This document shows positions 56,554 to 57,666 of a stretch of DNA of 64,000 nucleotides, in pieces. Made by a program: the position numbers and the translations under genes. The notes below the pieces were generated by a model. The model ran no database searches, was not told the origin of the DNA, and saw nothing but the letters and a program-made list of their open reading frames with translations. The stretch's first letter is position 1. The number at the start of each line of letters is the position of its first letter. Source of the DNA: an uncultured Bacillota bacterium (lineage in GTDB: Bacteria > Bacillota_I > Bacilli_A > RFN20 > CAG-288); contig CASESG010000002.1 of assembly GCA_949290645.1 (NCBI GenBank), positions 1 through 64,000 on the forward strand. Direction: 5' to 3'.

Positions 56554-56581
56554 AAAAGCTCGGCCACAAACCGAGCTTTTC
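56553..56581. terminator. Bidirectional terminator
   Basis: A 10-bp stem (56554-56563 with 56571-56580) has A residues on one side and T on the other. It lies between the convergent permease and barnase-like genes and would stop transcription from both. Confidence 0.85.
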
Positions 56582-56583
56582 TT

Positions 56584-57600
56584 CTATTTCGAGAAATCTT
56601 CCAGGGCGACATCGACATAGGGAGTGGGATTGCAATCCGTTTCGGAATCGAGCTTTCCCCCACCGGTCTCGTTTCCGAAGCGCTCTCCCCAGCCGTTTTC
56701 GTAGTTGAGGTATTCCCAGAAGTCGTTGTAGTGGTTGTTCGTGTAGAAGACGAACGATTCCTCCAAGGGCTTTCCGTCGATGCGGCTTCGGGCGTAGACG
56801 ATCCGTGCCGCACCGCGGTCGATCGAATAGCCGTCGTTGTACTCTCCCGAATAGCCGGAGCCTGTCGTTCCGATATCCAGCTCGTAATAGCGAGTCTTTC
56901 CTCCGTTTCCGTAGATGTCGGGAAGGGAAGGCTCGTAGGGATACTTGTCCGTGTCTCCCTCGAAGGCCGAATGATTGACCCGAAGATACTTTCCCCATGG
57001 TGAAGTCTTTGGATTGCGGTCGTTCTTGTCCTCGTTGTAATTGACCGGGACATCCTTGAAGGCCTGAACATAGGCGGCGACCTCTTCCAGGGCGACATAG
57101 GCTCCGCCTCGATAGATCTCGAAGGCGACCTCGCCCTGGGAATCCAGGACCGTATAGGTGTTTCCGTCCTCTGAGAAGAGAGAACTCGTGTTCTTGACAA
57201 GAAGAGAGCCTTCCATCGGTTGGTCTGGGGCAATGGTCGGTTCATCCGACTGCTCTGCGATCGATCCACTCATCAAGAAGTGGAGGCTTCGATAATGGCT
57301 GTCCCAATAGTCCTTCGCCGGCTCATAGTCCTCGTAGAACTGATCCCTTTCCGCCTTGGTGTCGATTCCGACATAGGGATCTTCTGGAATGACAGGGCTC
57401 GAGGAGCTGGAATTCGTCGAGGAAAGAGAAGAAGAAGTAGAAGAAGAAAGAGTCGAGTCGCTCGTCGTTTCATCAGAAGATAAAAGACTGCTCTCCTCAA
57501 AGGAAGAGGAGAGAGAAGAAGAGCAGGAAGAAGAGATGTTCTGACAGCCGGAGAGAACAAGGGGAAGAGAGAGAAGAAGGAAAGTGAATTTCTGTTTCAT
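56584..57600 (-). CDS. Lipoprotein with barnase-like ribonuclease domain
   Basis: This 338-residue protein has a lipoprotein signal with LSGC (Cys19), then a linker of about 50 residues that is mostly Ser (20-70). From about 150 the chain follows microbial guanyl-specific ribonucleases of the barnase type: VALEEVAAYVQAFKDVPVNY (169-188) for the first helices, YYELDIG with Glu240, DRGAARIVYA with Arg262 and Arg266, and FYTNNHYNDF with His290. These equal barnase Glu73, Arg83, Arg87 and His102, with the same Arg-x3-Arg spacing; the loop after Glu240 is about 12 residues longer. It would be a surface-anchored RNase. No barstar-like gene is next to it. Confidence 0.75.
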   Translation of the reverse strand: MKQKFTFLLLSLPLVLSGCQNISSSCSSSLSSSFEESSLLSSDETTSDSTLSSSTSSSLSSTNSSSSSPVIPEDPYVGIDTKAERDQFYEDYEPAKDYWDSHYRSLHFLMSGSIAEQSDEPTIAPDQPMEGSLLVKNTSSLFSEDGNTYTVLDSQGEVAFEIYRGGAYVALEEVAAYVQAFKDVPVNYNEDKNDRNPKTSPWGKYLRVNHSAFEGDTDKYPYEPSLPDIYGNGGKTRYYELDIGTTGSGYSGEYNDGYSIDRGAARIVYARSRIDGKPLEESFVFYTNNHYNDFWEYLNYENGWGERFGNETGGGKLDSETDCNPTPYVDVALEDFSK

Positions 57601-57631
57601 GTGCGCCAAAAAAGATAGCAGATTTCCTTTC

Positions 57632-57660
57632 AAAAAGAAAGGGCAGGGAGAACCCTGCCC
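57632..57660 (-). terminator. Terminator of the marR-ABC operon
   Basis: A perfect 8-bp stem (57641-57648 with 57653-57660) is followed on the - strand by TTTCTTTTT, 6 nt after the ABC gene stop. It separates that operon from the barnase-like gene. Confidence 0.9.
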
Positions 57661-57666
57661 CAAAAA

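What the first reader, a model, noticed from the sequence alone, without database searches (positions are those of the whole stretch)
56584..57600. Surface-anchored barnase-like ribonuclease without a visible barstar
A lipoprotein signal and a Ser-rich tether carry a domain with all four barnase catalytic residues (Glu240, Arg262, Arg266, His290) in correct order and local context. Barnase-type RNases are normally free secreted toxins paired with a barstar inhibitor. Anchoring to the cell surface suggests use of environmental RNA as food, or contact killing. It lies between two exporter operons.
Basis: partly seen in the sequence, partly recalled or inferred. Interest (0 to 1): 0.7.

Follow-up and report, generated by a model that had tools for sequence, protein, structure and literature searches.

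The report
Surface-tethered barnase-like RNA-eating enzyme
An uncultured gut bacterium carries on its surface an RNA-cutting enzyme built on the barnase fold, most likely used with partner surface enzymes to turn outside RNA into nucleosides it seems unable to make; it belongs to a widespread, apparently undescribed branch of a known enzyme family.

Summary
Gene 57600..56584 (-) encodes a 338-aa lipoprotein (lipobox LSGC, Ser-rich tether) ending in a 269-aa domain whose C-terminal 150 residues have the barnase fold. That core is modelled at pLDDT 90, and its ten best PDB matches are all binase or barnase (best E 4.5e-5), with nothing else below E about 1. E240, R262, R266 and H290 occur in essentially all of 101 distinct homologues, and a Lys/Arg stands at the barnase-Lys27 position in 90. 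The family is widespread in gut Firmicutes bins and almost always lipid-anchored.

No barstar was found in the genome, and none of 28 relatives with a close homologue has one. No candidate immunity gene is conserved nearby, which weighs against a toxin system. The same genome encodes an endonuclease-I lipoprotein, a 5'-nucleotidase-like lipoprotein and a Bmp-type nucleoside transporter, and lacks detectable purC and dihydroorotate dehydrogenase. Homologues sit beside endonuclease I, SNase or 5'-nucleotidase genes in several lineages. Best reading: a surface RNase for nucleic-acid scavenging. Activity and role are untested; across relatives, RNase presence is not significantly linked to missing synthesis genes. 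New variant of a known kind; moderate interest.

The parts
56584..57600 (-). gene for the surface-tethered barnase-like ribonuclease (338 aa + stop); a TTG start 3 codons upstream (57609) is an alternative
   Evidence: homologues start at the equivalent Met
57544..57600 (-). lipoprotein signal peptide with lipobox LSGC (residues 1-19)
   Evidence: sequence; 99 of 101 distinct homologues have a lipoprotein-type signal by a relaxed pattern, the other two are cut off by contig ends
57394..57543 (-). Ser-rich unstructured tether (residues 20-69)
   Evidence: sequence; replaced by Big_2 Ig-like repeats in many homologues
57115..57393 (-). conserved N-terminal accessory region of the domain (residues 70-162), no known family
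   Evidence: alignment A1; AF2 pLDDT 93-98
56665..57114 (-). barnase-fold catalytic core (residues 163-312)
   Evidence: AF2 pLDDT 90, pTM 0.86; Foldseek top ten PDB hits all binase/barnase, E 4.5e-5 to 6e-4
57025..57027 (-). Lys192, equivalent of barnase Lys27 (position is K or R in 90 homologue segments)
56881..56883 (-). Glu240, equivalent of barnase Glu73 (general base)
56815..56817 (-). Arg262, equivalent of barnase Arg83
56803..56805 (-). Arg266, equivalent of barnase Arg87
56731..56733 (-). His290, equivalent of barnase His102 (general acid)
56554..56580 (.). terminator-like symmetric hairpin between the convergent FtsX and RNase genes
57640..57661 (-). terminator-like hairpin separating the MarR-ABC-ABC operon from the RNase gene

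Best explanation
The protein is a lipid-anchored extracellular endoribonuclease of the barnase (N1/T1) superfamily. It is exported by the Sec lipoprotein route, held on the outer face of the membrane by its lipidated cysteine, and spaced out by a Ser-rich tether. The barnase-fold core would cleave environmental RNA (diet, host or lysed cells) by metal-free transesterification and hydrolysis, with Glu240 and His290 as general base and acid and Arg262, Arg266 and Lys192 binding phosphate. The products, 3'-phosphorylated oligonucleotides and 3'-NMPs, would be dephosphorylated by a surface 5'-nucleotidase-family lipoprotein, and the nucleosides imported by the Bmp-type ABC transporter to feed salvage. 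Tethering keeps the products next to the uptake system. Shown computationally: fold, catalytic residues, lipoprotein signal, presence of the partner genes in the same genome, and no detectable barstar, purC or dihydroorotate dehydrogenase. Inferred: enzymatic activity, base preference, surface exposure, and the pathway linking the parts.
For: Fold: core model pLDDT 90; the ten best PDB matches are all binase or barnase, prob 1.00, E 4.5e-5 to 6e-4, TM to target mostly 0.59-0.66, and the next hit has E 1.4. Profile versus PDB sequences: 33 of 34 hits are barnase, binase or constructs of them. Catalytic residues invariant. Anchoring nearly universal among homologues. Same genome: endonuclease-I lipoprotein with the same kind of Ser tether (L154:4645-6630) and a second endonuclease I with a C-terminal TM segment (L155:4614-6314); 5'-nucleotidase-like lipoprotein with a Ser tether (L152:436-1953; PF02872 match below cut-off; 28% identity to the L033 nucleotidase; sequence); Bmp lipoprotein (127.9 bits) next to an ABC ATPase. 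purC not found in the genome and found in only 7 of 98; dihydroorotate dehydrogenase not found in the genome. Gene neighbours of homologues: endonuclease-I lipoprotein between the ABC genes and the RNase in the corresponding locus of two same-genus genomes (L028, L029); endonuclease I just upstream of divergent members (L036, L038, L039); 5'-nucleotidase overlapping the RNase gene by 5 bp (L033); SNase lipoprotein upstream and SurE plus two DHH-DHHA1 genes downstream in a Clostridia group. Precedent: surface nuclease and 5'-nucleotidase lipoproteins serve nucleotide salvage in mycoplasmas (PMC11729948, PMC12115388).
Against: No biochemical data. Full-domain Foldseek is weak (best RNase Sa, E 0.65); only the trimmed core gives a clear match, so the N-terminal accessory region is unexplained. 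Presence of the RNase across 97 relatives is not significantly associated with absence of purC (1 of 28 vs 5 of 69, p 0.67) or dihydroorotate dehydrogenase (8 of 28 vs 29 of 69, p 0.25). In the window itself the neighbours are exporters, not nucleases. The genome is 84.7% complete, so absences are provisional. Several neighbour associations come from related genomes and are not independent. Endonuclease I is common in this order (91 of 98 genomes), so its presence is not specific to RNase carriers.
Confidence: 0.75

Rival explanations
1. It is a contact-dependent antibacterial toxin: the tethered RNase domain is released into or delivered to neighbouring cells, with an unrecognised immunity protein protecting the producer.
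For: Barnase domains are common warheads of polymorphic toxins with barstar immunity (PMC3482391). The catalytic domain is C-terminal, and long homologues have Ig-like stalks.
Against: No barstar found in the genome, and the single barstar among 98 genomes is in G027, whose only hit in the homologue search is a weak N-terminal one. No neighbour family is conserved across more than 24 of 101 loci, and the commonest is generic ABC transporters. The domain is 50-60% identical across genera rather than swapped among toxin types. Recognisable neighbours include nucleases and nucleotidases. No uptake or delivery module was recognised.
Confidence: 0.08
2. The surface RNase protects rather than feeds: it degrades extracellular RNA, for example phage RNA, biofilm RNA or host RNA.
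For: Surface location and nearby nucleases (endonuclease I, SNase) fit general nucleic-acid clearance. Mycoplasma nucleases are discussed in relation to neutrophil extracellular traps (PMC9740415, listed).
Against: Nothing in the neighbourhoods points to defence. The nucleotidase and nucleoside-uptake partners fit feeding better. The two functions are not exclusive.
Confidence: 0.1
3. The domain has the barnase fold but is an RNA- or nucleotide-binding protein without catalysis.
For: Family-specific insertions and an N-terminal accessory region; the Pfam score of this protein is below the curated cut-off.
Against: All four catalytic residues are retained in essentially every homologue, and Lys/Arg at the Lys27 position in most. 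Loss of catalysis usually shows as substitution at these sites.
Confidence: 0.06

Closest known systems
Barnase / binase (Bacillus extracellular guanyl-preferring RNases; Pfam PF00545, N1/T1 superfamily)
   Same: Fold (Foldseek E 4.5e-5), N-terminal helix and P-x-N-Y motif, Lys27/Glu73/Arg83/Arg87/His102 equivalents, exported
   Different: Lipid-anchored instead of released; extra conserved N-terminal region of about 90 residues and longer loops; no detectable barstar in the genome; PF00545 score of this protein below cut-off
Streptomyces RNase Sa
   Same: Best PDB match of the full-domain model (weak, E 0.65)
   Different: Free secreted enzyme of 96 residues, no tether
Mycoplasma surface nucleases (MnuA and relatives) with membrane 5'-nucleotidase lipoprotein
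   Same: Works like it: membrane-anchored nuclease plus nucleotidase for salvage of nucleotides (PMC11729948, PMC12115388)
   Different: MnuA and related mycoplasma enzymes are not of the barnase fold (own knowledge); not members of this family
Polymorphic toxins with Tox-Barnase warheads (PMC3482391)
   Same: Barnase-type catalytic domain at the C-terminus of a surface protein
   Different: No barstar, no recognised delivery module, no warhead exchange seen

Membership tests
Barnase / N1-T1 RNase superfamily (PF00545) | barnase fold | tested here: met
   core model: top ten PDB hits all binase/barnase, E at most 6e-4
Barnase / N1-T1 RNase superfamily (PF00545) | catalytic Glu, two Arg, His in order | tested here: met
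   E240, R262, R266, H290; invariant in 40 homologues, present in essentially all of 101
Barnase / N1-T1 RNase superfamily (PF00545) | Lys27 equivalent | tested here: met
   K192; 81 K and 9 R at this position; spacing differs by one residue from barnase NYITK
Barnase / N1-T1 RNase superfamily (PF00545) | Pfam score over the curated cut-off | tested here: inconclusive
   window protein 19.7 (20.8 for the domain alone) vs 24 bits; homologue L035 scores 33.6
Barnase / N1-T1 RNase superfamily (PF00545) | guanyl-preferring, metal-independent RNase activity | not testable with these tools
   needs assay
Barnase-barstar pair | barstar-family inhibitor in the genome | tested here: not met
   none in the genome (84.7% complete); 1 of 98 genomes searched, none among RNase carriers
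Polymorphic toxin system | adjacent immunity gene | tested here: not met
   no conserved candidate neighbour
Polymorphic toxin system | toxin-delivery module | tested here: not met
   only lipobox, Ser tether or Big_2 repeats recognised
Mycoplasma MnuA-type surface nuclease | SNase or other MnuA-type fold | tested here: not met
   only PF00545 matched in the nuclease domain; barnase fold
Bacterial lipoprotein | signal peptide with lipobox Cys | tested here: met
   MKQKFTFLLLSLPLVLSGC

The most novel reading that the evidence does not exclude
The conserved N-terminal accessory region of about 90 residues (70-162) acts as a built-in folding or inhibitory module that keeps the RNase inactive until it is exported and lipidated, replacing barstar: a self-protected barnase.
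Probability: 0.1. Interest if true: 0.7.

Novelty: new variant of a known kind. Interest (0 to 1): 0.42.

Why it matters
Surface nucleases are known to feed nucleotide-auxotrophic mycoplasmas, but the reviewed cases found here are not barnase-type RNases, and a widespread lipid-anchored barnase branch in uncultured gut Firmicutes appears undescribed in the papers searched. It suggests a testable way for small-genome gut Bacilli to live on environmental RNA, and raises the question of how a cell carries a barnase-type enzyme without a recognisable barstar.

Tried and rejected
phmmer of the single protein against PDB found only noise; the family profile was needed. NCBIfam gave no relevant match. 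tblastn in plasmids found nothing and the viral-contig scan found no relative, so there is no sign of a mobile or phage origin; the viral fold library gave no significant match. Foldseek with the whole 269-aa domain was inconclusive, resolved by modelling the core alone. Searching for PF00545 in the own genome returned nothing, because this protein is too divergent for that screen, so it does not show absence of other barnase-like genes. SNase not found in the own genome. Association of RNase presence with missing purC or dihydroorotate dehydrogenase among 97 relatives: not significant. Co-transcription with the MarR-ABC-ABC operon was considered; a terminator-like hairpin at 57661-57640 argues against it, though the only promoter-like site found lies upstream of it at 57695-57666, so read-through is possible. 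Distances between catalytic residues in the model could not be measured. Paper searches on barnase-like surface lipoproteins found no description of this family; subscription papers are not covered.

Full report
What is there. The ORF at 57600..56584 (-) encodes a 338-residue protein: a lipoprotein signal peptide ending LSGC, a Ser-rich tether to about residue 69, and a globular domain to the end. It lies between a MarR-ABC-ABC operon on the same strand and a convergent ABC-FtsX pair. Terminator-like hairpins lie on both sides, so it is probably transcribed alone, although no promoter was found in the short gap and read-through remains possible.

Is it barnase-like? Pfam PF00545 matches at E 1.3e-3, below its curated cut-off. 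A homologue search of 98 genomes gave matches in 48, of which 28 relatives carry a strong one (E below 1e-15), most at 47-62% identity. Forty homologous domains (27-63% identity to the window domain) keep 13 invariant residues, including E240, R262, R266 and H290, with Y238, D242, P185, N187, T287 and Y291. In 101 distinct homologues from the whole-genome and named-genome searches these are present in essentially every aligned segment, and the Lys27 position is Lys or Arg in 90. A profile of the family searched against PDB sequences returns 33 barnase, binase or derived sequences among 34 hits, the best at E 0.0019. AlphaFold models are confident (pLDDT 94 for the domain, 90 for the core). With the whole domain Foldseek is weak (RNase Sa, E 0.65), but the 150-residue core gives binase and barnase as its ten best PDB matches, E 4.5e-5 to 6e-4, and nothing else below E 1.4. 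The fold and the catalytic set are therefore well supported. Activity itself is not shown, and the geometry of the residues in the model could not be measured.

Family anatomy. By a relaxed pattern 99 of 101 homologues carry a lipoprotein-type signal, the other two being truncated by contig ends. The stretch before the conserved domain ranges from about 40 to about 590 residues (5th to 95th percentile); it is a Ser-rich tether in the window protein and contains Big_2 Ig-like repeats in several long homologues. The conserved domain includes about 90 residues N-terminal to the barnase core (70-162) that match no Pfam family and are absent or divergent in the distant members (L035-L039). Named genome records with homologues are mostly unnamed Bacilli and Clostridia bins, many from ruminant, deer and rabbit guts ('Lapin' labels read as rabbit).

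Self-protection. No barstar was found in the genome (84.7% complete). Only one of 98 genomes has one, and that genome (G027) has only a weak N-terminal match in the homologue search. No neighbouring gene family is conserved across the 101 loci that could serve as immunity; the commonest neighbours are ABC transporters in 24 loci. Export as an unfolded lipoprotein precursor may suffice, or the accessory region may help; both are conjecture.

Function. Partners for RNA scavenging exist in the same genome: an endonuclease-I lipoprotein with the same kind of Ser tether and a second endonuclease I with a C-terminal membrane segment; a 5'-nucleotidase-like lipoprotein with a Ser tether (28% identical to the nucleotidase at L033); and a Bmp-type nucleoside-binding lipoprotein next to an ABC ATPase. 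purC and dihydroorotate dehydrogenase were not found in it; purC is missing from 91 of 98 genomes. Neighbourhoods of homologues point the same way: an endonuclease-I lipoprotein between the ABC genes and the RNase in two same-genus genomes whose locus otherwise matches the window (L028, L029); endonuclease I upstream of divergent members (L036, L038, L039); a 5'-nucleotidase gene overlapping the RNase gene by 5 bp (L033); and, in a Clostridia group, an SNase lipoprotein upstream with SurE and two DHH-DHHA1 genes converging downstream (in one search the printed labels SurE and NrnA are swapped, as the lengths and the Pfam matches show). Many of these loci are related to one another, so the number of independent associations is only a handful. 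Endonuclease I is common in the order, and RNase presence does not correlate significantly with missing purC or dihydroorotate dehydrogenase. The scavenging model is therefore favoured, not proven.

Comparison with known systems. By fold and residues it belongs to the barnase/N1-T1 superfamily; it differs in anchoring, accessory region and the apparent lack of barstar. Bacillus enzymes of this type are released, and some are induced by phosphate starvation (PMC5021464). Functionally it resembles the surface nuclease plus 5'-nucleotidase lipoproteins of mycoplasmas (PMC11729948, PMC12115388), which use other folds. Polymorphic toxins with barnase warheads (PMC3482391) share the domain but come with barstar immunity and delivery modules, which are not seen here.

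Verdict. Observation confirmed; interpretation partly supported, with feeding favoured over killing. New variant of a known kind.

Noticed in passing
L068:2834-4711, L073:2221-4581: Large lipoprotein (626-1500 aa in different genomes) made of repeated units of about 150 aa, upstream of the RNase and next to an SNase lipoprotein in a Clostridia group; the L068 copy has no Pfam match at 1e-3.
   Followed up: partly
L036:6613-7878, L038, L039: Metallo-beta-lactamase-fold exported protein directly upstream of endonuclease I and a divergent barnase-like gene, same strand.
   Followed up: partly
98 genomes: Endonuclease I (PF04231) is unusually abundant in this order: 91 of 98 genomes, up to 10 copies (G050), many in long ORFs.
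   Followed up: no
L147 (G027:C64:3154-3411): The only barstar among 98 genomes, in a genome with only a weak N-terminal hit in the RNase homologue search; its partner was not sought.
   Followed up: no
L155:6537-11219: Run of lipoprotein genes next to the membrane-anchored endonuclease I, two of them with repeated glycine-containing motifs.
   Followed up: no
window 57600-57610: No clear Shine-Dalgarno before the ATG; an in-frame TTG 3 codons upstream may be the true start.
   Followed up: no
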